Assembly: GCA_019459145.1 (NCBI GenBank)
Contig: JAIBEK010000014.1
Span: 62,001-126,000 of the forward strand
DNA: 64,000 nt
Direction: 5' to 3'
Source of the DNA: Arenimonas sp.
GTDB lineage: Bacteria > Pseudomonadota > Alphaproteobacteria > Rhizobiales > Rhizobiaceae
The translations under genes were made by a program, and so were the position numbers. The notes under the pieces were generated by a model that was given only the letters and a program-made list of their open reading frames with translations, did not search any database and was not told the origin of the DNA. Below are positions 35,411-46,385 of the stretch, one piece after another; position 1 is the stretch's first letter; each line of letters starts with the position of its first letter.

Positions 35411-36073
35411 ATGACCATGGCCGGAAACGCCAGAGACATACGCAAGAACGATCCGGAAAAGACCAGGGAGAACATCCTCGAGGTCGCGACGACGGAGTTT
35501 GCCGAATTCGGCCTCTCGGGCGGGCGGGTCGATGCGATCGCGGAAAAGACCCGCACCTCCAAGCGGATGATCTATTATTATTATGGCAGCAAGGAAGGTC
35601 TCTATCTTGCCGTGCTCGAAAGGGCCTACCGAAAGATCCGCGCCCTGGAATCCGATCTCGCGCTGGCCGACATGCCGGCGGAAGCGGCCTTGCGCCAGCT
35701 CATTTCCTCCACCTTCGACCACGATGAACGCAATCCGGATTTCGTCCGGCTGGTCAGCATCGAGAACATCCATCATGCCATGCACATGCGGCGCTCGACG
35801 GAGATCGGCGAACTCAACATATCGGTCATCCGCACCATCCAGGAAATCCTCGACCGCGGCAGGCGGGAAGGCGCTTTCAAGCGCAATGTCGATGCGATCG
35901 ACCTACACATGCTGATCAGCGCCTTCTGTTTTTTCAGGGTCTCGAACCGATACACGTTCGGCACGATCTTCCATCGCGACCTGTCCGAGCCGGTGCTTTA
36001 TGCGCGACACAAACAGATGATTTCGGATGCCGTGATCGCCTATCTCGCAGTGCCGGAATCGGTTGCCGCGTGA
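35411..36073 (+). CDS. TetR-family regulator of the quinate/shikimate genes
   Basis: This 220-residue TetR/AcrR protein has an N-terminal helix-turn-helix (ILEVATTEFAEFGLSGGRVD, then AEKTRTSKRMIYYYYGSKEG, about 20-65). The C-terminal ligand domain has FVRLVSIENIHHAMHMRRS and LISAFCFFRVSNRYTFG. It resembles TetR proteins with a C-terminal TetR_C_33/CadC-like domain that often control aromatic acid pathways. It is divergent from qsuD, with a perfect palindrome in the gap and a near copy before the dctP operon. The inducer is probably a pathway intermediate. The start is ATG 35411 after GGGGGAGTGGA. Confidence 0.88.
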   Translation: MTMAGNARDIRKNDPEKTRENILEVATTEFAEFGLSGGRVDAIAEKTRTSKRMIYYYYGSKEGLYLAVLERAYRKIRALESDLALADMPAEAALRQLISSTFDHDERNPDFVRLVSIENIHHAMHMRRSTEIGELNISVIRTIQEILDRGRREGAFKRNVDAIDLHMLISAFCFFRVSNRYTFGTIFHRDLSEPVLYARHKQMISDAVIAYLAVPESVAA

Positions 36074-36129: not shown

Positions 36130-37800
36130 TCAGTCGCCTATTGTCGGAACGTCGCCCGCCCACCCGCTGAACTGCCTGATCAGGCGCTCGCGCAGACTGT
36201 CCATCGACGGCTCCGGGCCTTGCGGGTCGGGCGTCATGCCCACTCCAAAACCCTCCGCTGCGAAACCTTCGACCAGCGCGCGGTCCGTGCTGACGATATG
36301 GACCGGCACGGAGCGCGAGGCATCCGGTCCGGTGACGAGCGCGGCGGGCTGGTGATCGCCGAGCACGACGAAGACGGCGCCTCGGCCGAAGCGGGCGATG
36401 TAGTCCCCCAGTGTTTCCAGCGTATAATCAATGGTCTCGACATATTGCCGGCGAACGCGATCATGATCGGCCCAAACCACCTGCGGCGTATCTCCGCTTG
36501 CGACCTGTTCGTTAAAGGCCGTGCCGTCGCCGACAGCCTGCCAATCGATCAGCTTCGGCACCGGCGTCCACGGCGCATGGCTGGAAATAAGCGCGATCTC
36601 GGCCATGACGGGCTTGCCCGCCTCATGCGCAGGTTCGCGGGCGAGGCGATCGAAGGCCGAGAGCGTATACTGGTCCGGCATGGTCACCCAATTGAACGGC
36701 TTGCCGCGATAGCCGAGATCCTTGGACGCAAGGATCTGGTCGTAGCCGAAATAGGCGGCTTCCGGCCAATCCATGGTGATGGCGGGCATGACCGCAGCGG
36801 TCCGCCAGCCGGCATCGCGAAACTGCCGGTTGAGGCTCGCCCGCTCGCTCTTCATCAAAAGGTCGTAGCGCGCCTGGCTGTCGACCCAAAGGCCTGACAG
36901 CAGCGTGCCGTGGGCAAGCCAGCTGAGACCGCCGACGGTCGGCGACCGTGTCCAGCCGCTGGCTGCGGAGAAACCCGCCGCCTGCAGCTGACCCTCGATG
37001 GCCTGAAGGCGCGGCTTGATCAGCGCGCCATAGCGCGAATCCTCGATGGCGCTTCGCCCGTAGGATTCGATGAAGACGAGGATCACGTCGCGACCCCTGA
37101 TGCGGGCGAAGAGATTGTCTCTCCCGGCAAATCCCTTGTCGCCCGCGAGTTCGCCTTCGAACCGCCTGATATCGGCGATGGAGCGGACCACGAGCGAAAG
37201 TCGCTCGCCGAGATAGGAAGTCACCCGCAGTTCGGCGACATCCTTCAACCCCACCCGAGAGCCGCCCGCCAGCAGACCGAGGCCAGCGGCGAAGATGATG
37301 GCGAAACCGGCGACAGCCGCGCGCCGGGCGGGCCGTGCGAGCCGTGTCATACGGACAGAGGCCCACCAGAAAGCGCCGACCAGCATTGTCATGGTTACCG
37401 CCGCCAGCGCGATCACGAGAGCCGCGCCAAGATTGCCGACGGCACCGGAAAGCAGGTTCCATCCGTCGAACAGCATCTTCATGTCGAGATAGGGATTGAA
37501 GCGTCGCTGGAAGGCGGCGAGCACGCCGACATCCGCGGACTTCAGAAACAGAAGACAAAAGACGACGGTCGTGGCAAGAAGCGCGACGGGGACGGCCATC
37601 CGCCTCGGCAGCAGCAGCAAAGCGAGCGCGAGCAGCGGTACCTCAAGCGGTATCCGCAGGAACGCCATGGGATGGAAGGCGCCAGGATTGTCCGGCATCG
37701 TGCAGGCGGCAAAACCGATGACGGCGAATATGAGGACCGAAAGCACAGCCTTCCAGCCGGAGACCCGCATGCGCCCATCGTCCGATCCGTATCGCGTCAT
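36130..37800 (-). CDS. LtaS-like membrane phosphotransferase / sulfatase-fold protein
   Basis: This 556-residue protein has five predicted membrane helices in residues 15-185 and a periplasmic alkaline-phosphatase/sulfatase domain after about 250. Likely metal and catalytic residues are Glu in LVFIESYGRSAIED, Thr in SPTVGGLSWLAHGT, His in ISSHAPWTP and Asp-His in VVLGDHQPAA, the pattern of lipoteichoic-acid synthase and phosphoglycerol or phosphoethanolamine transferases. It may decorate a surface glycan or lipid; the substrate is unknown. The start at 37800 (MTRYGSDDGRM) follows GGAAGGTGAACCGG. It is divergent from the flippase-like gene with 62 bp between, and may belong with the unusual cluster to the right. 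Confidence 0.82.
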   Translation of the reverse strand: MTRYGSDDGRMRVSGWKAVLSVLIFAVIGFAACTMPDNPGAFHPMAFLRIPLEVPLLALALLLLPRRMAVPVALLATTVVFCLLFLKSADVGVLAAFQRRFNPYLDMKMLFDGWNLLSGAVGNLGAALVIALAAVTMTMLVGAFWWASVRMTRLARPARRAAVAGFAIIFAAGLGLLAGGSRVGLKDVAELRVTSYLGERLSLVVRSIADIRRFEGELAGDKGFAGRDNLFARIRGRDVILVFIESYGRSAIEDSRYGALIKPRLQAIEGQLQAAGFSAASGWTRSPTVGGLSWLAHGTLLSGLWVDSQARYDLLMKSERASLNRQFRDAGWRTAAVMPAITMDWPEAAYFGYDQILASKDLGYRGKPFNWVTMPDQYTLSAFDRLAREPAHEAGKPVMAEIALISSHAPWTPVPKLIDWQAVGDGTAFNEQVASGDTPQVVWADHDRVRRQYVETIDYTLETLGDYIARFGRGAVFVVLGDHQPAALVTGPDASRSVPVHIVSTDRALVEGFAAEGFGVGMTPDPQGPEPSMDSLRERLIRQFSGWAGDVPTIGD

Positions 37801-37862
37801 CCGGTTCACCTTCCCGCAGAGTGGAATGTCATTTTGAACGATCGCCCCGAAACGAGACCGAG

Positions 37863-38786
37863 ATGCGCAAGCTGAAGCCATTCGCCATCGCCGCCGGCCT
37901 CCTGCTTCTTGCCGCGGTCCTTCTCGCCGTCGATCCGGCGGGCGTCATCGAAGCGCTCAGCCGGGTACCGTCGGGGCACATTCTGGCAGCCGTGCTGGTG
38001 GTCCAGGTGCAGATCGTGCTGTCGGCGCTTCGCTGGCGTTTCACCGCCGCCCGGCTCGGCCATGCTATATCGGTTCCAATCGCGGTCCGCGAATATTATC
38101 TCGGCGGCGTTCTCAACCAGATCTTGCCCGGCGGCATCGCCGGCGATGCGGCCCGCGTGTACCGTAGCCGGCAAGAAAATCCCGGCGGCTGGAAACGGGC
38201 CGCGACCGCCGTCGTGCTGGAGCGACTGTCCGGTCAACTGGCCTTCCTGCTGCTTACATGCCTCGGCCTGATCGCCTGGCCGATCCTTATGCCCGACAGC
38301 ATGCCGATCGCCCTCTCGCCGGCGATCTGGATCGTGGTGGCCGTCATTGTCGCCCTCACCGCCATCGGCGCATGGTTCAGCGCGCCGCTCAAGGCTCGGC
38401 TGGGTCAATTCGGCCCCGACATTCATGCCGCGTTCTGGAGGGACGGGGCGCTTGGCGTGCAGGCCGGCCTCAGCACCCTGATCGTCGGAAGCTATGTCCT
38501 GACCTTCCTGCTGGCCTCCGACGCCGTCGGCGCGACGCTGCCGCCGATCGCCGCCGTGACCGCGGTTCCCCTCTGTCTTCTCACCATGCTGGTGCCCATC
38601 GGCATCGGCGGATGGGGAACGCGCGAAGCAGCCGCCGCGGCCCTCTGGCCTCTCTTTGGCTTCACCAGCGCGGAAGGTCTCGCGGCGAGCCTCTTGTACG
38701 GCGTGTTCTCGCTCGCAGGAACGGCCTTGCCCGGCCTGGTCGTTCTGGCCGGCTCCCTGCTCGCCGGGCTGCGCCGCAACAGATAG
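37863..38786 (+). CDS. Lysylphosphatidylglycerol synthase-type multi-pass membrane protein (AglD/UPF0104 family)
   Basis: This 307-residue inner-membrane protein has about eight helices. The family signature GGVLNQILPGGIAGDAARVYR (read as GGVLNQILPGGIAGD then AARVYR) and the later GIGGWGTREAAAAALW are clear. It matches the transmembrane flippase-like half of MprF and the stand-alone AglD-type proteins linked to lipid or glycan export. There is no aminoacyl-transferase domain, so it does not make lysyl-PG. A lipid-flipping role for the cluster product is conjecture. The start at 37863 (MRKLKPFAIAAG) is chosen because it opens the first helix. Confidence 0.82.
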   Translation: MRKLKPFAIAAGLLLLAAVLLAVDPAGVIEALSRVPSGHILAAVLVVQVQIVLSALRWRFTAARLGHAISVPIAVREYYLGGVLNQILPGGIAGDAARVYRSRQENPGGWKRAATAVVLERLSGQLAFLLLTCLGLIAWPILMPDSMPIALSPAIWIVVAVIVALTAIGAWFSAPLKARLGQFGPDIHAAFWRDGALGVQAGLSTLIVGSYVLTFLLASDAVGATLPPIAAVTAVPLCLLTMLVPIGIGGWGTREAAAAALWPLFGFTSAEGLAASLLYGVFSLAGTALPGLVVLAGSLLAGLRRNR

Positions 38787-38800
38787 GGCCGGAACGCCTG

Positions 38801-39553
38801 TCACGGCATCAACCGCGCGTAGATGTCGCCTGACGGGCTTTCGGACCCGAGCGCCGCGAGGTCCCGCGACACGGCGGCCGCGTCCTTCCATCCCGCATCG
38901 ACGAAGCGATGTCTCTCGCCGATCACCCGGTTGAAACGGTAATTGCCGAGCTGTCGGAGCCGGTCGATCGCCTCCTGGGCGATGGCCGGCAGGGCTGGGA
39001 TATATTCGAACGCGATGAGCCCGATCGGCCGGGAGAGGCCGCGCAGGATCTCCGCTTCCGCTCCTTCGACATCGATCTTGCAGAAGGCGGGCAGTCCGTA
39101 TCTGTCGATCAGCCGGTCGAGCGTCGTCATCGGCAGCCGGATTTCCCTGTCCCAGATGACGTTCTTGAAACCATCGGCATGGCTGACGCCCTTGATGAAG
39201 CGGTCGGATATGGTCGTGACGGTGGGATAGCGGCTTGAAATGTGGAGCACCGCCTCGCCTTCGCTCGCGCCGACCGCCACCCGCTCGAAACCCCTCAACC
39301 GTTCGGCCAGATGCCTGTCGATAATGTCGGCGAAGACCGGCTGCGGTTCGACCGCAACCACCTCGGCGCCGAGCGAAATCAGCGTGCGGCTGCGGCTGCC
39401 GACATGGGCGCCGATATCGAAAACAAGGTCACCGGGCGAGATCAGGCTGCCGTAGAAACGCCGGAGCTGCCATCGACGCCATGGCTGGCCGTAATAGATC
39501 AGCAGCGAACGGGCGACGCCGATCGCGGTGTCGACACTGTCAACGCCTCTCAT
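38801..39553 (-). CDS. FkbM-family SAM-dependent methyltransferase
   Basis: This 250-residue methyltransferase has motif I in LVFDIGAHVGSRSRTL (about 43-58), the acidic VVAVEPQP strand and the FkbM signature FCKIDVEGAEAEILRGL. FkbM enzymes O-methylate hydroxyls of polyketides or sugars. The start codon at 39553 overlaps the stop of the CDP-alcohol phosphatidyltransferase by 4 bp, so the two are translationally coupled and part of one minus-strand operon with the RibA-like gene. The target is unknown. Confidence 0.85.
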   Translation of the reverse strand: MRGVDSVDTAIGVARSLLIYYGQPWRRWQLRRFYGSLISPGDLVFDIGAHVGSRSRTLISLGAEVVAVEPQPVFADIIDRHLAERLRGFERVAVGASEGEAVLHISSRYPTVTTISDRFIKGVSHADGFKNVIWDREIRLPMTTLDRLIDRYGLPAFCKIDVEGAEAEILRGLSRPIGLIAFEYIPALPAIAQEAIDRLRQLGNYRFNRVIGERHRFVDAGWKDAAAVSRDLAALGSESPSGDIYARLMP

Positions 39554-40329
39554 TCGTCGACCTCCGCCTTGCTCAGGAGATAAAGACAATCGATCGCGAA
39601 GGAATAGGAAAGCGACAGAAGCGCGATGGCGGCAAGCCATGAGGAAACAGGCGGAGCGATGCCAGGCAAGAGGATGAGGCACAGCACGGCCACCTGCACC
39701 ACGCAGACGAGCTTGCGCCTGAGCGACGGCGGCAGCGACCCTGCAAGGCGCGGCAGAGGATACTGCGCCAGCACGAAACCATAGCGCATCAAGCCGATCA
39801 GCAGCACCCAGCCTCCCGCCTTGTCGAGGAGGAGCGCCGCGGCGGACAGACAGAGGATCAACAACGCGTCGACCTCCATGTCGAACCGGGCACCAAGCTC
39901 GGACTCCTGTCCGAAGCGACGGGCCAGATGGCCGTCGACGCCATCAAGCGCGAGAGCGAGCAACACGAGCAGGACAAGTGTCCAGAGCGTGGCCTCCGCG
40001 CCTTGCAGCGGACCGGGAAAGAACACCGCCGCCGCCACCATGCTGACAAGCGCCGCGCGGACAGCCGTGACCGTGTTGGCCAAACCGAAGCGCTCGAAGC
40101 CGTGGCGCGGCAGACCGTGGATGACAAGCGCGAAGATGAAAAGGAGCAGGATTACCGCAGCGATTATGGCGTCGCGCCCGAGCGAAAGATGTTCGGCTGC
40201 CAGTCCATAACCGGCGATTGCGGCGATGAAGACCCCGCCGAGAACGGTCAGCGCGCTGGCCTTGAGCGCGGGCGATGGCCCGCGATCGGCGACGGCCGCC
40301 TGCACGACTGATGGTTCCTTCGTCGTCAT
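39550..40329 (-). CDS. CDP-alcohol phosphatidyltransferase family protein
   Basis: This 259-residue membrane protein has about six helices and a full catalytic motif: DGVDGHLAR followed by eight residues, then GARFDMEVD. This fits D-x2-DG-x2-AR-x8-G-x3-D-x3-D exactly. Such enzymes move a phosphatidyl (or phospho-alcohol) group from a CDP-linked donor to an alcohol. It is neither PgsA nor PssA by context: it sits 6 bp after a RibA-like gene and overlaps an FkbM methyltransferase. The acceptor is unknown and might be the product of the neighbouring pyrimidine/pterin-type enzymes. Confidence 0.87.
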   Translation of the reverse strand: MTTKEPSVVQAAVADRGPSPALKASALTVLGGVFIAAIAGYGLAAEHLSLGRDAIIAAVILLLFIFALVIHGLPRHGFERFGLANTVTAVRAALVSMVAAAVFFPGPLQGAEATLWTLVLLVLLALALDGVDGHLARRFGQESELGARFDMEVDALLILCLSAAALLLDKAGGWVLLIGLMRYGFVLAQYPLPRLAGSLPPSLRRKLVCVVQVAVLCLILLPGIAPPVSSWLAAIALLSLSYSFAIDCLYLLSKAEVDE

Positions 40330-40335
40330 GTTCGC

Positions 40336-41442
40336 CTATTCCGCGGCAAGAAGGGCCTCGATATCCAGCATATGGCCGGCGCGCGCCTTCTTCGTCCGCA
40401 GGTAGCGGGCGTTCTCGACCGTCACCTCGCCGGTGATGGCAACACGGCTGTTCACCTTGATGCCCCCGTCGGCAAGCGCTGCCATCTTGGCCGGATTGTT
40501 GGTGAATATGACAACATCATCGATGCCGAGCAAGCGCAGCATCGCGATCGCCGCCTCGTAGCGGCGGTGGTCGCTGCCATAACCCAGTTCCGCATCGGCA
40601 TCGATCGTATCCAGACCGAGATGCTGGTACCCGTAGGCCCGCATCTTGGCGCCGATGCCGGTGCCGCGTCCCTCCTGGTCGAGATAAAGCAGCACGCCCC
40701 CACCGACCGCCTTCATCGATGCGAGACCGTTGCGCAGCTGGTCGCCGCAATCGCATTTGAGCGACCCGCAGAGATCGCCGGTGATGCAGGAGGAATGGAT
40801 GCGGATCGGCACCGGGGCGCTGAGATCGGGCTGGCCGACCACAATCGCGACCTGATCCTTCTGCGCCAGTCCGCCACGAAAGACGACGAACTCGGCATCG
40901 CCGAGATCCCGCAGCGGAACGCGGGTGCGGACCACGATATCGAACTTCTGTCGTGCGGCGGTGACGTCCGCGAGCAGCGATCGGTCGAGCGTGCAACAGG
41001 CCGCGAACCGGTGTTCAAAGCCGTTGAGGTCGGCGCAGACCATGGCCGGCAGCAAAAGCGCCAGCCGTGCCAGTTCGGCGGATGCACCCATCAACGGGTC
41101 GGCCGCGCCCCAGCGGGCCGGTGCCGGCGCTTGAAGCGCGTAGGAAAGGCGCGAAGCTCCTGCGAAGGAGACCCCGTCGAGCGGGACTGAAATATCACCA
41201 CGCGCGCCCGGCAAAAGTCTCGCGACACGGTGTGATGTCAGGAAAAGCGAGTGCTTCTCGTCGACGGCGGCGGCAAATTGGTCGTAGACGGACGGGGCGG
41301 CGCTATCCAGCGCCAACACGGCAATCCGGCGCGAGCCCTCCCCGAGGATGACCGGCCGGCCAAAGCGCAATTCGGCGACGGCACGTTCCACCTGCATTGC
41401 AGGCGAGGCAAACTGGAAACCTTGGTCGTCAAACGGTGTCAT
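40336..41442 (-). CDS. GTP cyclohydrolase II-like protein with degenerate N-terminal RibB-like region
   Basis: This 368-residue protein ends in a complete GTP cyclohydrolase II domain (about 170-368): Zn cysteines C219, C230 and C232 in SSCITGDLCGSLKCDCGDQL, the DQEGRGTGIGAKMRAY loop (255-270), and TNNPAKM. The product of this activity is the 2,5-diamino-6-ribosylamino-pyrimidinone phosphate that starts riboflavin and some deazaflavin or antibiotic routes. The N-terminal 150 residues resemble DHBP synthase only at AVAELRFGRPVIL; the acidic metal loop and later catalytic motifs are missing. The genetic setting (CDP-alcohol transferase, glycosyltransferase, methyltransferases) argues against housekeeping riboflavin synthesis, so I give no symbol. 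Confidence 0.87.
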   Translation of the reverse strand: MTPFDDQGFQFASPAMQVERAVAELRFGRPVILGEGSRRIAVLALDSAAPSVYDQFAAAVDEKHSLFLTSHRVARLLPGARGDISVPLDGVSFAGASRLSYALQAPAPARWGAADPLMGASAELARLALLLPAMVCADLNGFEHRFAACCTLDRSLLADVTAARQKFDIVVRTRVPLRDLGDAEFVVFRGGLAQKDQVAIVVGQPDLSAPVPIRIHSSCITGDLCGSLKCDCGDQLRNGLASMKAVGGGVLLYLDQEGRGTGIGAKMRAYGYQHLGLDTIDADAELGYGSDHRRYEAAIAMLRLLGIDDVVIFTNNPAKMAALADGGIKVNSRVAITGEVTVENARYLRTKKARAGHMLDIEALLAAE

Positions 41443-41759
41443 CAGAATTCTCCAACATGTCCGATAACAAGCTTACGCGTGGAAGCCCCGAGCGGATCAT
41501 TCATGCTGACCATCGCTGGCCGGATTTTCGGATCGCTCGCGATGGTGATCCCGCTCCACCCTTGAAACGACAAGAAACCTGCACATTTTGAGCAATCCTC
41601 CCCTGCGACATCGCCCGATCGACCGTGCCGGCTGAACGGTCGATGAAAACACCGTGGCATCATCCGCGAATTCGAGGCATCGTAGCCACCAATTCCGTAA
41701 CCGGCTCGACAGTTCGGTCAGGGGACGTCATCGCCCCCGCGCCGCCAAGGAGAAGACCA
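41443..41759. promoter_or_regulatory. 317-bp divergent control region of the RibA-like and BchC-like genes
   Basis: This gap must hold promoters for both arms of the unusual cluster. It contains a perfect 9-bp inverted repeat ATCGACCGT (41618-41626) / ACGGTCGAT (41636-41644) with a 9-nt spacer, and a wider pair ACCATCGC (41509-41516) / GCGATGGT (41539-41546). I checked for an FMN riboswitch and did not recognise its conserved core. AAGGAGAAGACCA at the right end is the ribosome site of the BchC-like gene. Confidence 0.5.
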
Positions 41760-42761
41760 ATGAACCTGGATACCAGGACCGTCGGGAAGGCAGGCGTCGG
41801 CAATGCCCGCGCGTTGTGGTTTCCAGCCGCCGGGCAATGCGAAATACGGGACGAGGCCATGCCGCCGCCAGTGGAGGGCCAGGTACTCGTGCGCATGCTG
41901 TTCAGCGGCATCAGCCGCGGCACGGAGAACCTCGTCTTCAACGGCCACGTGCCCGCCGGCGAATTCGAGCGCATGCGCGGACCCCACATGGGCGGAGATT
42001 TTCCCTTTCCGGTGAAATACGGTTATTCGGCCGTCGGACGGATTGAAGCAGGCAGCGCCGCGCTTCTCGGCAAGGCGGTGTTCTGCCTTCACCCGCATCA
42101 GGATATCTTCACCGTCGGCGAGGACGCCGTGACCGCCCTGCCGGACGGAGTGCCGCCGGCGCGGGCCGTGCTGGCGGCCAACATGGAGACGGCACTGAAC
42201 ATCGTCTGGGATGCGGACATCCTGCCGGGTGACCGGGTCGCGGTCTTCGGCGCCGGCGTCGTCGGCACCCTCGTCGCCTATCTCGCCTCGCACATCATCG
42301 GCACCGACGTCCTACTCGTCGATCGCAACCCGGCAAGAAAGCGCCTGGCCGAAAGGCTCGGCCTCGACTTTACCTCAGGCGAACAGCTCGCCGGCGAATT
42401 CGACGTGGCTGTCAATGCCTCCGGTTCGGGCGACGCACTTGCCCGCGCCATCGAACTGGCCGGGCAGGAGGCCCGCATCGTCGAGGCAAGCTGGTATGGT
42501 GACAGGCCCGTCAGCCTGCCGCTCGGCGGCGCCTTCCATGCGCGGCGGCTGACCATCGTCAGTTCTCAGGTGGGTTCCGTGCCGCCAGCGAGGCGGTCGC
42601 GCTGGACCTATGCAAGACGGCTCGCAAAGGCCCTCGACCTGCTGCGCGACGACCGCCTCGATGCCCTGATCTCCGGCGAAACTCGGTTCGCCGACCTCGA
42701 GAGCGCCTATCCGGCGATCCTCGCCGATCCGGAAACCCTTTGTCATCGTATCCGCTACTAA
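41760..42761 (+). CDS. BchC-like medium-chain dehydrogenase without zinc cysteines
   Basis: This 333-residue MDR-superfamily protein has a GroES-like N-terminal part (about 15-140) and a Rossmann domain with VAVFGAGVVGTLVAYLAS and an acidic LLVDRNPARK after the second strand, which suggests NAD. The SGISRGTENLVFNG segment and FCLHPHQDIF are like BchC (bacteriochlorophyllide hydroxyethyl dehydrogenase) and its non-photosynthetic relatives. The catalytic-zinc Cys of common alcohol dehydrogenases is replaced by Ser here. It is the first gene of a four-gene plus-strand operon with the QueD-like, GT4 and methyltransferase genes. The substrate is unknown. Confidence 0.82.
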   Translation: MNLDTRTVGKAGVGNARALWFPAAGQCEIRDEAMPPPVEGQVLVRMLFSGISRGTENLVFNGHVPAGEFERMRGPHMGGDFPFPVKYGYSAVGRIEAGSAALLGKAVFCLHPHQDIFTVGEDAVTALPDGVPPARAVLAANMETALNIVWDADILPGDRVAVFGAGVVGTLVAYLASHIIGTDVLLVDRNPARKRLAERLGLDFTSGEQLAGEFDVAVNASGSGDALARAIELAGQEARIVEASWYGDRPVSLPLGGAFHARRLTIVSSQVGSVPPARRSRWTYARRLAKALDLLRDDRLDALISGETRFADLESAYPAILADPETLCHRIRY

Positions 42762-42788
42762 GACCAATATTTTTGAGAGCGAGGCCCC

Positions 42789-43187
42789 ATGTTCGCCGTT
42801 GAAGTCCGTGACCACATCATGATCGCCCACAGCCTGCCCCGCCCGGTTTTCGGTCCCGCGCAGGGCATGCATGGCGCCACCTTCGTGGTCGATGCCGCCT
42901 TCTTCACCCGCGACGTCGACGAGGACGGGCTGGCGGTCGACATCGGCGCGGCGACATCCGTGCTCGGCGAGGTGCTGAAGCCGCTCAATTACAAAAATCT
43001 CGACGAAGTCGCCGTTTTCACCGGCAAGGTCACGACGACAGAGGTGATCGCCAAGCACATCTTCGATGAACTCGCACGCGCCGTCGCCGACAAGAGGCTC
43101 GGTCCGGGCAGTCATCGTATCTGCCGGCTGAAAGTGACCCTGCACGAATCTCACGCGGCCCGCGGCTGGTACGAGGCCGATCTTTGA
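42789..43187 (+). CDS. 6-pyruvoyl-tetrahydropterin synthase/QueD-like protein, active site degenerate
   Basis: This 132-residue protein has the T-fold of the PTPS/QueD family (VDIGAATSVLGEVLKPLNYKNLDEV, TTTEVIAKHIFDELAR and the late Glu in VTLHESHAARGWYEA). Two Zn-type histidines remain, H14 in MIAHSL and H28 in GMHGA, but the third (HGH in QueD) is Ala30. The nucleophile Cys and the catalytic Asp-His pair (LDHHYLN in E. coli QueD, LNYKNLD here) are not conserved. It therefore probably does not make 6-carboxytetrahydropterin and may act on, or bind, a related compound. Its stop overlaps the TTG start of the glycosyltransferase by 4 bp. Confidence 0.8.
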   Translation: MFAVEVRDHIMIAHSLPRPVFGPAQGMHGATFVVDAAFFTRDVDEDGLAVDIGAATSVLGEVLKPLNYKNLDEVAVFTGKVTTTEVIAKHIFDELARAVADKRLGPGSHRICRLKVTLHESHAARGWYEADL

Positions 43188-44251
43188 GCCAGAGCGTCAC
43201 CTTCGCCTATCCCGGCGATCTGGGCTTGAACACCGGCGGCTATGCCTATGATCGCCGGGTCATATCAGGTCTCTCGGAAAACGGCTGGTCGGTCGAGCGC
43301 CTGCCGCTGGGCGAGGGCTTTCCGTTCCCCACCGCAGAAGGGAAGCTTGAGGCCGAACGCAGGCTGTCGGAGCTTTCGGACGGCGCGCTCGTGGTGATCG
43401 ACGGCCTTGCCTTCGGCGTGCTGGACGAATGGGCCGGGCGCGAGGCTGAGCGCCTGCGCATCGTCGCCCTTGTCCATCATCCGCTGGCGCTCGAGACCGG
43501 TCTCGACAACACGCAGCAGAGCGTCCTTCACCGATGCGAGCGCCGATCGCTGTCCCTTGCCAGCCACGTCATCGTCACTTCGCCGATGACCGCGCGCGCG
43601 CTGGTGGCCGATTACGGCATGCCGGCACTGCGGATCACGGTCGCCCTTCCGGGCACCGATCCCGCGCCCGCCGCCGCCGGAACCGGCATTGGCACTGGCA
43701 CTGACACTGACGATCCGCCGCATATCCTCTCCATCGGCACCCTGATCCCACGCAAGGGCCACGACGTTCTGATCGACGCACTGAAAGAGGTGGAGCATCT
43801 GCCCTGGCGGGCGACCATCGTCGGCAGCCAGACCCTCAATCCGCAGACAGCCACGCTTCTGCACCGGCAGGTCGAGGCGCTCGGCCTGACCGCACGGATT
43901 TCACTCGCCGGCGAATGCGACGATCCGCGCCCGCTCTTGGCCGGCGCCGACATCTTCGCGCTGGCCAGCCGGTTCGAGGGTTATGGAATGGTATTCGCCG
44001 AGGCCCTTTCGCAGGGACTGCCGATCATCGCCTGCCGGGCGGGGGCCATCCCCGAGGTCGTTCCCGAGGAAGCGGGCCTGTTGGTGCCCGTCGATGACGT
44101 CGGCGCCTTTGCCCGAGCACTCCACAGCCTTCTCACCGACACGACCCTGCGGCGGGCGAAGGCCGAAGCGGCAAGGCTTGCCGGTGCGCAATTGCCGGGC
44201 TGGGCGACGACTGTCGATATCATCTCGACTGCATTGAGGGGGCTTCCATGA
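43184..44251 (+). CDS. Family 4 glycosyltransferase (GT-B)
   Basis: This 355-residue GT-B enzyme has an N-terminal acceptor domain beginning FAYPGDLGLNTGGYAYDRRV and a C-terminal donor domain. In the latter, LSIGTLIPRKGHDVLIDAL and the E-x7-E motif FEGYGMVFAEALSQGLPIIA (about 262-281) are clear. It should transfer a sugar from a nucleotide donor onto a cytoplasmic acceptor. Translation seems to begin at TTG 43184 within the QueD-like stop, since the sequence from there is conserved-looking and no ATG or GTG follows soon. A hexanucleotide repeat encodes the interdomain linker TGIGTGTDTD. It overlaps the methyltransferase start by 4 bp. Confidence 0.85.
   Translation: MSQSVTFAYPGDLGLNTGGYAYDRRVISGLSENGWSVERLPLGEGFPFPTAEGKLEAERRLSELSDGALVVIDGLAFGVLDEWAGREAERLRIVALVHHPLALETGLDNTQQSVLHRCERRSLSLASHVIVTSPMTARALVADYGMPALRITVALPGTDPAPAAAGTGIGTGTDTDDPPHILSIGTLIPRKGHDVLIDALKEVEHLPWRATIVGSQTLNPQTATLLHRQVEALGLTARISLAGECDDPRPLLAGADIFALASRFEGYGMVFAEALSQGLPIIACRAGAIPEVVPEEAGLLVPVDDVGAFARALHSLLTDTTLRRAKAEAARLAGAQLPGWATTVDIISTALRGLP
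43682..43711 (+). repeat. Five-unit imperfect hexanucleotide repeat in the GT4 gene
   Basis: Five tandem hexamers (ACCGGC, ATTGGC, ACTGGC, ACTGAC, ACTGAC) encode Thr-Gly-Ile-Gly-Thr-Gly-Thr-Asp-Thr-Asp in frame. They lie in the likely linker between the two domains of the glycosyltransferase. Unit changes would keep the frame, so length variation should be tolerated. Confidence 0.7.
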
Positions 44252-45042
44252 GCGGCTTCGACAAGGACTGGCTGGCGTTGCGCGAGCCCGCGGATCGTGC
44301 CGCGCGTCATGATGGGCTGGTGGCCGACCTGGCGCGCCATCTCGCCGGCATGGGAAACGCGCGCATTCTCGACATCGGCTGCGGCACCGGCTCGACCTGG
44401 CGCAGCCTTAAAGATCGGATGCCCGGCGAGGTGGGCTGGACGCTGCTGGACCATGATCCCGGCCTGCTGGAAGAAGCAGAACGGCGGATCGGCCAAGACA
44501 GCGAGGTCGCGTTCCGTCGGCACGACCTCAACGACATCGACGGCCTGCCGCTGGAAGGCGTCGATGTGGTCACCGCGTCGGCGCTGTTCGATCTGTGTTC
44601 GGAGCGCTTCTGCGAGGCTGTCGCCGACCGGCTCGCATCGGCACGCATCGGCCTCTACGCGGCGCTGAACTATGACGGGATCATGGACTGGTCTCTCCCT
44701 CACCCGCTCGACGAACGGATGGTGGACCTTTTCAACAGGCATCAGCGCACGGACAAGGGGTTCGGCCCGGCGCTCGGACCCGATGCGACGTCCTGCCTCG
44801 CCCGCCAATTCGCGGCGCGTGGGTACGACGTCAGGATCGGCAACAGTCCATGGCGGATGGATGCGAGCTCGACCGCCCTGCAGGTCGAACTGCTGAACGG
44901 CCTGCGCCGTCCGCTTCTGGAGATGTCCGAATTGTGGGAAAAAGAAGTCGACGACTGGCTGGAATACCGCCTTGCGGCCATCGGCCAGCCGGGGAGTTCA
45001 TGCCGGGTCGGCCACACGGACCTGCTGGCCCTGCCGGTCTGA
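44248..45042 (+). CDS. Class I SAM-dependent methyltransferase
   Basis: This 264-residue protein has SAM-binding motif I in ARILDIGCGTGSTWRSL (about 36-52), an acidic strand in GWTLLDHDPGLLEEAE and the motif DLNDIDGLPLEGVDVVTASALFDL. ATG overlaps the glycosyltransferase stop (ATGA), so it is the last gene of the plus-strand operon. The 3' end overlaps by 45 bp the convergent RibD-like gene. The substrate is not readable from sequence; methylation of the glycosylated or pterin-like cluster product is a guess. Confidence 0.84.
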   Translation: MSGFDKDWLALREPADRAARHDGLVADLARHLAGMGNARILDIGCGTGSTWRSLKDRMPGEVGWTLLDHDPGLLEEAERRIGQDSEVAFRRHDLNDIDGLPLEGVDVVTASALFDLCSERFCEAVADRLASARIGLYAALNYDGIMDWSLPHPLDERMVDLFNRHQRTDKGFGPALGPDATSCLARQFAARGYDVRIGNSPWRMDASSTALQVELLNGLRRPLLEMSELWEKEVDDWLEYRLAAIGQPGSSCRVGHTDLLALPV

Positions 45043-45801
45043 GACGCGGGCCCGCTCAAGCCGACAGTCGAACAGGATGTCGCTGCCGAGATTGTAGACC
45101 TCGGTCACCGGGCGATGCGCACCGGCCAGCCGCTCGATTGGCGACAGCATGATGCCGCTCGGCCCGGAACCTATGATGATCGGCGAAATGGCGACATGCA
45201 GCCGGTCGACGAGGCCGGCATCGATGAACCGCGCAATCGTGCGGGCACCGCCTTCGACCAGAACCCGCAAGAGATTGCGGCGCGCCAGCGCATCGAGAAT
45301 GTCTTGCGGGTCGAGCCCACGGGCCTTGGGCTGAAGGTCTATCACCTCCGCCCCCGGCAGCGCCCTGCCCTTGGCATTGGCGCTGCGGAAGACGATCACG
45401 TTTGTCCCGCCATCGTGAAACAGGCTTTCGCCACCCTCCAGGACTGCGTGGCAATCCACGACAACGCGTACCGGCGCCGGCCCCCTGACCATCCTGACCG
45501 AGAGTTTCGGATCGTCGGCCCTGACCGTGCCCACGCCGACGATGACGGCATCAACCAGCGCTCGACAGCGATGCAGATGGGCAAGGCCGTCAGGGCCGGA
45601 AATATCGCGCGCGTCGCCCGCCGGCGTGGCGACACGGCCGTCGAGGGATTGTCCGACCTGTGCCAGAACGAATTGTTCGCGCGCGCCTGCGATCGGTGAA
45701 TAAAGCGCATGGGCGGCGTCGGTCGCCGCGACATCGTCGGCGCCCTGCCGAAGAGCAAGAAGCCGGTCCCAGGTCGCCTCGGTGATCTCCATGCTGCGCA
45801 T
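44998..45801 (-). CDS. RibD C-terminal (reductase) domain protein, dihydrofolate reductase fold
   Basis: This 267-residue protein has the RibD reductase domain from about residue 40: FVLAQVGQSLDGRVATPAGD, CRALVDAVIVGVGTVRADDP and VLVEGGARTIARFIDAGLVD (given in three pieces). There is no deaminase domain, as in fungal and archaeal enzymes that reduce the ribosylamino-pyrimidine before deamination. Combined with the RibA-like gene 3.5 kb away it could make a reduced, still 2,5-diamino ribityl-pyrimidine. The start at 45801 (MRSMEITEATWD) or 45792 is possible; a longer open frame upstream would overlap the cytochrome gene and is rejected. It lies 8 bp after the cytochrome b561 gene. Confidence 0.83.
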   Translation of the reverse strand: MRSMEITEATWDRLLALRQGADDVAATDAAHALYSPIAGAREQFVLAQVGQSLDGRVATPAGDARDISGPDGLAHLHRCRALVDAVIVGVGTVRADDPKLSVRMVRGPAPVRVVVDCHAVLEGGESLFHDGGTNVIVFRSANAKGRALPGAEVIDLQPKARGLDPQDILDALARRNLLRVLVEGGARTIARFIDAGLVDRLHVAISPIIIGSGPSGIMLSPIERLAGAHRPVTEVYNLGSDILFDCRLERARVSDRQGQQVRVADPA

Positions 45802-45809
45802 TGTCGGCT

Positions 45810-46385
45810 CTACAGTATCCGGTACAAGGTGGTGTCGCGCTTGATCACATGATGAAGCAGCACCGCCCCGATATGCAACGCAAACAGCAGCAAAAGGATC
45901 CACGCGCTCCAGGCGTGGACCGCGGAAAACGACCCGGCAATGTCCGGCGCCTTGTCCAAAGGGCTCCAGACAGGGATCAGGCCGAACCACACCAGCGGGA
46001 AGCCATGCGCGTTGGTGGCGAGGAAACCGCTCACCGGCATGACGATCAGGAACACATAGAGCAGGCCGTGGACGGCGGTCGCCGCAAACCGCTCGATGGC
46101 CGGTCCTTCGGCAGGCGGCGGCGTTGCGATCAGCCTGTTGCCGACTCGCAGCAACATCAGCCATAGCACCAGGAAGCCAAAACTCTCATGGACCATGTAG
46201 AAATCCAGTGTCACCTCCTTCTTGGTGAACTGGATGAAAAAGCCAAGCGGCCAGGTCGCAAGCACGAGCACCGCCACGACCCAGTGGAGAATGCGCGACG
46301 TGGCGGGATAACGCTCGACGCGGATGACCGCTTCGGACGGGCAGGTGGCCTTCGAAAGGATGTTCGTTTCGCTGGTATTGGACAC
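45810..46385 (-). CDS. Cytochrome b561 family protein
   Basis: This 191-residue inner-membrane di-heme protein has four helices with His ligands in RILHWVVAVLVLATW, FYMVHESFGFLVLWLMLL, AVHGLLYVFLIVMPVSGF and the last helix LLFALHIGAVLLHHVI. It should shuttle electrons between quinol and a periplasmic or membrane partner. Start: GTG at 46385 is preceded by GGGGGAAGAACC, and no ATG is suitably placed. It lies directly upstream of the RibD-like reductase on the same strand, which hints at a redox role in the cluster, though b561 proteins also stand alone. Confidence 0.85.
   Translation of the reverse strand: MSNTSETNILSKATCPSEAVIRVERYPATSRILHWVVAVLVLATWPLGFFIQFTKKEVTLDFYMVHESFGFLVLWLMLLRVGNRLIATPPPAEGPAIERFAATAVHGLLYVFLIVMPVSGFLATNAHGFPLVWFGLIPVWSPLDKAPDIAGSFSAVHAWSAWILLLLFALHIGAVLLHHVIKRDTTLYRIL

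What the first reader, a model, noticed from the sequence alone, without database searches (positions are those of the whole stretch)
36130..46385. Unusual cluster joining RibA/RibD/QueD-like enzymes with glycosyl-, methyl- and phosphatidyl-transferases
Seen: two divergent arms. The minus arm is RibA-like, CDP-alcohol phosphatidyltransferase, FkbM methyltransferase; the plus arm is BchC-like dehydrogenase, QueD-like, GT4, methyltransferase with 4-bp overlaps. A RibD-reductase-only gene and a cytochrome b561 close it, and a flippase-like protein and an LtaS-like phosphotransferase flank it. Known: RibA makes a diamino-pyrimidine from GTP, and a RibD reductase without deaminase matches the fungal/archaeal order of steps. 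Inference: the cluster makes a glycosylated, methylated pyrimidine- or pterin-derived compound that may be attached to a lipid and moved across the membrane. I know of no characterised pathway with this set.
Basis: partly seen in the sequence, partly recalled or inferred. Interest (0 to 1): 0.8.

Follow-up and report, generated by a model that had tools for sequence, protein, structure and literature searches.

The report
Conserved uncharacterised GTP-derived metabolite gene cluster
A block of genes that recurs in many Hyphomicrobiales and in some other bacteria seems to borrow the first steps of vitamin B2 synthesis to build a sugar-bearing, methylated ring compound, perhaps delivered to the cell envelope, that was not found in the papers searched.

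Summary
The window carries eleven intact genes (36130-46358): LtaS-like sulfatase, flippase-like, FkbM, CDP-alcohol phosphatidyltransferase, RibA | BchC-like dehydrogenase, PTPS, GT4, methyltransferase | RibD reductase, cytochrome b561. It is a conserved unit: in 153 loci chosen for a related PTPS, the dehydrogenase is near in 144, GT4 in 140, methyltransferase in 138, RibD in 88, RibA in 54. Of 297 genomes of the order, 89 of 89 PTPS carriers and 1 of 208 others have the dehydrogenase. The "QueD-like" protein is not QueD but the FGPAQ (PTPS-IV) subfamily: catalytic Cys and third zinc His replaced, pterin-anchor Glu kept, in 153 of 153; its solved relative is SCO6650. The RibD-like gene lacks the deaminase and is nearest reductases that act before deamination. 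Both Streptomyces clusters with RibA have Met at the switch residue beside a creatininase-family gene. Best reading: GTP to diaminopyrimidinone to its ribityl form, then T-fold protein and dehydrogenase, glycosylation, methylation, and delivery by one of two largely exclusive modules. Product and late steps are inferred. Part of the neighbourhood is in print (PMC5445326).

The parts
36130..37881 (-). LtaS-like sulfatase-family membrane protein (delivery module B); start codon uncertain
   Evidence: Pfam Sulfatase 29.3 bits; no meaningful solved relative by sequence; family in 39 of 153 loci
37863..38786 (+). flippase-like membrane protein (LPG_synthase_TM)
   Evidence: Pfam 154 bits, TIGR00374 51.2; in 35 of 153 loci, also in Streptomyces and Microbacterium copies
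38801..39553 (-). FkbM-family methyltransferase; start chosen by the 4-bp overlap with 39550-40329
   Evidence: TIGR01444 72.7 bits; in 50 of 153 loci
39550..40329 (-). CDP-alcohol phosphatidyltransferase (module B)
   Evidence: Pfam 68.9 bits, only weak equivalog scores; motif DGVDGHLAR...GARFDMEVD seen in the sequence; in 46 of 153 loci
40336..41442 (-). GTP cyclohydrolase II (RibA, PRK08815 type) with a roughly 165-aa N-terminal extension without Pfam match; zinc Cys and switch Tyr present
   Evidence: NF006456 483.5 bits over cut-off 464; residues aligned to E. coli RibA
41443..41759 (.). divergent intergenic region, presumed promoters of both arms
   Evidence: not analysed further
41760..42761 (+). 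MDR-type dehydrogenase related to BchC, named zinc-binding alcohol dehydrogenase in public records; the usual zinc-ligand motifs (recalled) are not seen
   Evidence: near PTPS in 144 of 153 loci
42789..43187 (+). PTPS-IV (FGPAQ) T-fold protein; catalytic Cys to Gln, third zinc His to Ala, anchor Glu kept
43184..44251 (+). GT4 glycosyltransferase; best solved matches 3c4q/3c48 ('predicted glycosyltransferases', recalled as MshA), further down PimB'/PimA-type chains
   Evidence: in 140 of 153 loci
44248..45042 (+). class I SAM methyltransferase
   Evidence: Pfam Methyltransf_25 44.6 bits; alignment; in 138 of 153 loci
44998..45801 (-). RibD-type reductase without deaminase domain
   Evidence: RibD_C 133.5 bits; best solved relatives 6p8c and 2azn; in 88 of 153 loci
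45810..46358 (-). cytochrome b561 (start uncertain)
   Evidence: Ni_hydr_CYTB 106.8 bits; family in 67 of 153 loci

Best explanation
The cluster is a dedicated pathway that diverts the pyrimidine branch of riboflavin synthesis before deamination. RibA opens GTP to 2,5-diamino-6-ribosylamino-4(3H)-pyrimidinone 5'-phosphate; the RibD-type reductase turns the ribosyl into a ribityl chain; because there is no deaminase the 2-amino-4-oxo face stays, and the PTPS-IV protein holds that face with its conserved Glu and, with the dehydrogenase, reshapes the ring or side chain into a pteridine-like core. GT4 adds a sugar and the methyltransferase(s) methylate. The unit is then delivered to the envelope by module B (CDP-alcohol transferase linking it to a phosphatidyl group, flippase-like protein, LtaS-like phosphotransferase), as in this window, or, in about half of the loci examined, by an MdoH-type membrane glycosyltransferase. 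Shown: the families, their co-conservation, the altered PTPS active site, the intact RibA zinc and Tyr residues, the missing deaminase, the two largely exclusive modules. Inferred: every substrate and product, the step order, the envelope location and the role of cytochrome b561.
For: Co-conservation: dehydrogenase 144, GT4 140, MT 138, RibD 88, RibA 54 of 153 loci; 89 of 89 against 1 of 208 genomes for the dehydrogenase and 46 of 89 against 8 of 208 for PRK08815-type RibA. The core also occurs in Actinomycetota and Gammaproteobacteria on plasmids. Chemistry: RibA keeps C54/C65/C67, Y105, D126 and R128 of the E. coli enzyme; RibD is nearest 6p8c (80 bits, deposited as a 2,5-diaminopyrimidinone reductase) and 2azn (73), then 2hxv (65) and 7lrh (61), whereas the housekeeping RibD reductase domain is nearest 7lrh (170) with 2azn at 67 and 6p8c at 60; the anchor Glu is kept in 153 of 153 while Cys27 is Gln and His33 is Ala in 153 of 153. 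Both Streptomyces clusters that carry RibA have Met at the switch residue beside a creatininase-family gene, consistent with a formyl intermediate (product recalled from Spoonamore 2006) being deformylated to the same pyrimidine. The genome has its own full RibD, so the cluster RibD is extra. Among solved chains GT4 resembles glycosyltransferases recalled to act on inositol phosphate or phosphatidylinositol.
Against: No enzyme of the cluster was assayed. RibA was not recognised in the fetched stretch of 99 of 153 loci and RibD in 65; 5 genomes that carry the PTPS (G295, G271, G081, G146, G210) show no zinc-cysteine GTP cyclohydrolase II at all. Five cluster RibAs have Leu at the switch residue and no creatininase label in their stretch. 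RibD does not reach the cut-off of the archaeal-type reductase model and its NCBIfam scores hardly separate that type from bacterial RibD (112.5 against 107.4 bits); other chains deposited as this reductase score low (4ha7 37, 9l1f 30 bits). The Streptomyces creatininase scores higher against MftE (141 bits) and creatininase (99.7) than against ArfB (37). In NCBIfam GT4 is nearer EpsE (79.1) and TIGR03088 (68.2) than MshA (66.3), all far below cut-off. Three Streptomyces plasmid loci have the PTPS alone. No pteridine-ring-closing enzyme is recognised in the window's cluster. Lipid attachment rests on module B only.
Confidence: 0.5

Rival explanations
1. The core makes a soluble or glycan-linked compound (for example a nucleoside-like glycoside or a cofactor); the CDP-alcohol transferase, flippase and sulfatase are a separate envelope-lipid module that happens to be clustered in part of the carriers.
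For: 75 of 153 loci have MdoH and no CDP-alcohol transferase, 32 have neither; in L133, L162 and L172 the module-B genes form a block of their own beside the core.
Against: Module B genes recur with the core in far-apart lineages: CDP-alcohol transferase and flippase-like genes in Streptomyces and Microbacterium, CDP-alcohol transferase and LtaS-like gene in Thiodictyon; the two modules are largely exclusive and the two states need only 5 changes on the core tree.
Confidence: 0.25
2. The RibA and RibD genes simply reinforce riboflavin supply and have no chemical link to the GT4/MT/PTPS genes.
For: The genome's RibBA has no zinc cysteines in its GTP cyclohydrolase II domain, so the cluster RibA may be its only canonical enzyme; RibA and RibD are missing from many PTPS loci.
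Against: A full RibD exists elsewhere and the cluster RibD lacks the deaminase that riboflavin needs; RibA and RibD recur together with the core (50 of 153 loci have both, 38 RibD alone, 4 RibA alone); RibA occurrence follows the PTPS, although only 19 of those 46 RibA genes lie within 10 kb of it.
Confidence: 0.12
3. The cluster belongs to deazaflavin (F420) synthesis, as an unpublished remark for PTPS-IV suggests (PMC5041015).
For: That remark (passages); F420 also starts from a ribityl pyrimidine (established knowledge).
Against: The window's genome has no CofH match at E 0.001; no F420 enzyme is among the window's cluster genes. The neighbour clusters of other loci were read by sight only.
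Confidence: 0.04
4. The PTPS-IV protein acts on FolE-derived dihydroneopterin triphosphate, giving a classical pterin side chain; RibA and RibD serve another branch.
For: FolE is encoded in the genome and the pterin-anchor Glu is kept.
Against: The catalytic Cys and third zinc His are replaced in 153 of 153; SCO6650 was reported to lack zinc and PTPS activity (recalled, Spoonamore 2008); FolE lies on another contig than the window (C62 against C70).
Confidence: 0.09

Closest known systems
PTPS-IV subfamily of COG0720 (FGPAQ signature) and SCO6650 (PDB 3d7j)
   Same: FGPAQ in 152 of 153 PTPS proteins; 3d7j is the best solved match, E 3.3e-37; the subfamily's published neighbourhood holds PF00925 (called FolE2 in that paper; Pfam names it GTP cyclohydrolase II) and PF01872 (PMC5445326, passages)
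   Different: The passages seen do not name the dehydrogenase, GT4, methyltransferase, MdoH or CDP-alcohol transferase; the F420 role stated in PMC5041015 is not supported for this genome
Streptomyces GTP cyclohydrolase II SCO6655 and its cluster (Spoonamore 2006, recalled; title seen as a reference in PMC3509567)
   Same: The S. fungicidicus cluster runs PTPS, GT4, MT, flippase-like, creatininase, RibA, which would fit the numbers SCO6650 to SCO6655; its RibA has Met at the switch residue
   Different: The window's RibA has Tyr there and its cluster no creatininase, so the direct diaminopyrimidinone is expected
Riboflavin pathway (RibA, RibD)
   Same: RibA and RibD_C families, residues of the GTP cyclohydrolase II site kept
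   Different: No deaminase, no lumazine or riboflavin synthase in the cluster; glycosyl-, methyl- and phosphatidyltransferases added
Phosphatidylinositol mannoside or mycothiol style pathways (CDP-alcohol transferase plus GT4)
   Same: GT4 nearest, among solved chains, to 3c4q (recalled as MshA) and PimB'/PimA-type chains; CDP-alcohol transferase beside it
   Different: No inositol phosphate synthase among the window's cluster genes; the acceptor would be a ribityl heterocycle (inference)
Toxoflavin and other products diverted from riboflavin intermediates (recalled)
   Same: RibA- and RibD-like enzymes reused for another product
   Different: Here a T-fold protein, dehydrogenase, glycosyltransferase and envelope genes; no direct comparison with toxoflavin genes was run

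Membership tests
QueD / PTPS-I (6-carboxytetrahydropterin synthase) | catalytic Cys and three zinc His (CxxxHGH and His16) | tested here: not met
   Cys27 to Gln and His33 to Ala in 153 of 153; His16 and His31 kept; TIGR03367 32.8 bits, cut-off 89.25
PTPS-IV | FGPAQ signature and PF00925/RibD_C neighbourhood (PMC5445326) | tested here: met
   window has both; FGPAQ in 152 of 153, RibA and RibD together in 50 of 153 loci
GTP cyclohydrolase II (RibA) | three zinc Cys and Tyr105 of the E. coli enzyme | tested here: met
   NF006456 over cut-off
Bifunctional RibD | N-terminal deaminase domain | tested here: not met
   only RibD_C matches in Pfam, and the TIGR00326 match covers profile 140-341 only
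2,5-diamino-6-ribosylaminopyrimidinone reductase (archaeal type) | membership of TIGR01508 at its cut-off | tested here: not met
   112.5 bits, cut-off 186.45, though the closest solved chain is deposited as this enzyme
BchC | TIGR01202 cut-off | tested here: not met
   60.9 bits, cut-off 291
CDP-alcohol phosphatidyltransferase | Pfam cut-off and the D-x2-DG-x2-AR-x8-G-x3-D-x3-D motif (recalled) | tested here: met
   68.9 bits, cut-off 22; motif read in the sequence
Lipoteichoic acid synthase LtaS | glycerol-phosphate transferase activity | not testable with these tools
   Sulfatase domain only; no meaningful solved match
F420 biosynthesis | FO synthase CofH in the genome | tested here: not met
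   no match
FAPy deformylase ArfB (Streptomyces creatininase gene, L177) | NF033501 cut-off | tested here: not met
   37 bits, cut-off 180; MftE 141 of 172, creatininase 99.7 of 235
DHBP synthase (RibB) origin of the RibA N-terminus | profile similarity and acidic DDDDRENE motif | tested here: inconclusive
   hhalign probability 3.4, E 0.013, co-linear over 148 columns; motif pattern absent, but that pattern also misses 9 of the 18 zinc-less RibA-like sequences; structure prediction not available

The most novel reading that the evidence does not exclude
The cluster makes an undescribed class of envelope molecule: a glycosylated, methylated ribityl-pteridine (or ribityl-diaminopyrimidine) head group built from GTP, anchored to a phospholipid in module-B organisms and to or with a membrane-made glycan in module-A organisms, perhaps redox-active and served by cytochrome b561.
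Probability: 0.3. Interest if true: 0.88.

Novelty: new variant of a known kind. Interest (0 to 1): 0.68.

Why it matters
Where annotated, these PTPS-IV genes are named 6-carboxytetrahydropterin or 6-pyruvoyl tetrahydropterin synthase in the plasmid records, although by their residues they cannot do that chemistry as known; their function is open in the papers seen. The gene set gives the family a concrete pathway context, names a likely substrate type (a 2-amino-4-oxo pyrimidine or pterin), and offers a culturable host with a module-A copy on a plasmid (Methylosinus trichosporium OB3b) in which knock-outs and metabolomics could identify the product. If the product is lipid- or glycan-linked, it would be a kind of envelope component of which the search made here found no mention.

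Tried and rejected
QueD/queuosine and classical PTPS roles for the PTPS: rejected on residues and on curated cut-offs. F420: no CofH. Simple riboflavin booster: lowered, see rivals. A degenerate RibB origin of the RibA N-terminus: hhalign inconclusive; the AlphaFold job was interrupted and the tool then switched off, so not settled. Solved-structure search gave nothing meaningful for the LtaS-like protein and only weak choline/ethanolamine phosphotransferase matches for the CDP-alcohol transferase. Re-clustering of unlabelled ORFs, read by sight, showed no further core gene: the largest cluster (47 loci) looks like ABC-transporter ATPases, the next (17 loci) is an unknown protein, the rest are in 14 loci or fewer. 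Rfam and tRNA scans of the window were empty. Promoters, phage and defence libraries and viral collections were not searched.

Selection and dropped rows: the 60 unnamed loci are the 60 best-scoring PTPS hits after the window's own (from 59 genomes; 89 of the 93 genomes count as carriers, the window's genome and a 65-bit fragment in G083 included, and 4 with hits of 21-22 bits were dropped); the 80 named loci are the 80 best of at least 582 relatives; 12 of 20 plasmid records were fetched. They favour relatives of the window and include duplicates of one genome (for example L037/L124, L039/L135, L035/L126, judged by matching contig lengths or gene order). In the dehydrogenase count, 11 of 101 genomes with matches of 113-135 bits were left out; none carries the PTPS, so counting them would give 12 of 208. 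In one search only 16 of the 54 RibA genomes reach the curated cut-off. The genome lists were copied by hand. Of 153 loci, 148 entered the tree and 118 of them bear one of the two module states.


Full report
What is there. The window lies in G000:C70:62001-126000, a 4.55-Mb genome judged 99.94% complete. Between a TetR-like gene (35411-36073) and a group that looks like enoyl-CoA hydratase and HMG-CoA-lyase-like genes (46648 onwards; these names are by sight of the translations) sit eleven open genes. Minus arm: RibA 40336-41442, CDP-alcohol phosphatidyltransferase 39550-40329, FkbM 38801-39553. Plus arm after a 317-bp gap: dehydrogenase 41760-42761, PTPS 42789-43187, GT4 43184-44251, methyltransferase 44248-45042. 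Convergent to it: RibD reductase 44998-45801 and cytochrome b561. Outside the minus arm: flippase-like 37863-38786 and LtaS-like 36130-37881. Family scores are in the observation check.

Co-conservation. A protein search of 297 genomes of the order found the PTPS in 93, of which I count 89 as real members. The dehydrogenase occurs in 89 of these 89 and in 1 of the 208 others (a partial hit in G111; Fisher p 3e-76), the PRK08815-type RibA in 46 of 89 against 8 of 208 (p 5e-21), 19 of the 46 within 10 kb of the PTPS. These genomes are related, so the p-values overstate independence. Record titles in the scan include Hyphomicrobiales, Rhodobacterales, Azospirillum, Xanthomonas and an Alcaligenaceae MAG; plasmid copies with more than the PTPS lie in Agrobacterium, Methylosinus, Palleronia, Neorhizobium, Thiodictyon, Arthrobacter, Streptomyces and Microbacterium. 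In the order the set is patchy: 2 of the 13 genomes of the window's own family that one search lists have the PTPS. In a draw of 299 genomes of the phylum, 19 had a match of 175 bits or more (my count of the listed places); the other matching genomes were at 45 bits or less, which I take for other PTPS subfamilies.

Two delivery modules. MdoH-type membrane glycosyltransferase and CDP-alcohol transferase are nearly exclusive near the core: 75 loci with MdoH only, 44 with the transferase only, 2 with both, 32 with neither. On a FastTree tree of the concatenated core (148 rows) the two states need 5 changes; for the MdoH label at least 4 are forced by well-supported branches. The window belongs to the second type, with flippase-like and LtaS-like genes. 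This suggests that the same small-molecule unit is handed to different envelope machinery, which is inference.

The PTPS is not QueD. It carries the FGPAQ signature of PTPS-IV (152 of 153; signature from PMC5445326, passages). Against E. coli QueD, Cys27 is Gln and His33 is Ala in 153 of 153, His71 is Tyr in 152 and Phe in 1, while His16, His31 and the anchor Glu110 are kept in 153 of 153. The best solved relative is SCO6650, 3d7j, E 3.3e-37. I recall, without having been able to read it, that the SCO6650 structure paper reported no zinc and no PTPS activity but a pterin-like binding site. A Glu that binds a 2-amino-4-oxo pyrimidine edge (established for T-fold enzymes; recalled) fits the product of a RibA and a deaminase-less RibD, and would not fit the deaminated intermediate of riboflavin synthesis. 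That fit is the central inference of this report.

RibA and RibD. The cluster RibA aligns with E. coli GTP cyclohydrolase II at the three zinc Cys, Tyr105, Asp126 and Arg128. Of 55 RibA sequences from 54 loci, 47 have Tyr at position 105, 5 Leu, 2 Met and 1, a fragment, Trp. The two Met forms are the Streptomyces fungicidicus and S. globisporus clusters, both with a creatininase-family gene divergent from RibA. The other two creatininase labels (L040, L147) are not beside RibA. I recall that SCO6655, a Met form, stops at the formyl intermediate (Spoonamore 2006; title seen in the reference list of PMC3509567). The S. fungicidicus gene order PTPS, GT4, methyltransferase, flippase-like, creatininase, RibA matches the numbering SCO6650-SCO6655, which I could not check in the S. 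coelicolor record. The creatininase is not an ArfB by its curated cut-off, so deformylation is a guess from context. The five Leu forms have no creatininase label in their stretches (neighbours of three of them listed), which speaks against a strict rule. The cluster RibD's best solved relatives are 6p8c (80 bits, deposited as a 2,5-diaminopyrimidinone reductase) and 2azn (73 bits, deposited under another name, recalled as archaeal), ahead of RibD chains at 65 bits or less, though other chains deposited as that reductase score 37 bits or less; the housekeeping RibD reductase domain instead matches 7lrh at 170 bits, with 2azn at 67 and 6p8c at 60.

The rest of the genome. A complete RibD is at C58, FolE at C62, no other PTPS family member over the threshold, no CofH. 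The only other GTP-cyclohydrolase-II-like domain is in RibBA at C2 and lacks the zinc cysteines.

Literature. Ten full-text searches of open-licence PubMed Central papers listed no description of the full set. Two papers bear on it: PMC5445326 (passages seen) reports that FGPAQ proteins neighbour PF00925 and PF01872; PMC5041015 (passages seen) assigns PTPS-IV to F420 synthesis as unpublished work. PMC2853524 (one passage) lists SCO6655 among genes whose expression is anticorrelated with predicted flux and says that most of those rise in stationary phase. Subscription papers are mostly not held, so prior work may have been missed.

Verdict. A real, widespread and coherent biosynthetic cluster. 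The early chemistry is reasonably predicted; the product, the late steps and the envelope role are open. Against it stand the many loci without RibA or RibD, the five PTPS carriers without any zinc-cysteine GTP cyclohydrolase II, and the solitary Streptomyces PTPS genes.

Noticed in passing
L002 (G000:C2:226949) and L197-L206, L209-L215: A GTP-cyclohydrolase-II-like domain without the three zinc Cys and Tyr105, in RibBA-like proteins (RibB motif seen by a narrow pattern in 9 of 18), makes up 18 of 30 sequences aligned; in 9 of the 20 genomes searched it is the only PF00925 match. Where their GTP cyclohydrolase II activity comes from is unclear.
   Followed up: partly
L062, L076, L079, L087, L091 (genus code g63): Cluster RibA has Leu instead of Tyr at the E. 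coli position 105, while the same genomes hold another PRK08815-type RibA match elsewhere, in three of the five with a stop noted inside the match; product of the Leu form unknown.
   Followed up: partly
L050:14200-15213 and 16 more loci: A conserved, probably exported protein (by sight) recurs near FkbM and MdoH in 17 loci; the one member searched (337 aa) has no Pfam or NCBIfam match.
   Followed up: no
L176, L182, L183 (Streptomyces plasmids): Solitary PTPS-IV genes near cupin, BTAD regulator and MBL-fold genes, without the rest of the cluster.
   Followed up: no
L129, L130, L133, L144, L162, L172, L186 and others (mostly Rhodobacterales): The core is joined by an inositol-monophosphatase-family gene (18 loci), a candidate for removing the ribityl phosphate; where GT4 is seen there it lies apart from PTPS.
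   Followed up: partly
window 44998-45042: The convergent methyltransferase and RibD genes overlap by 45 bp at their 3' ends.
   Followed up: no
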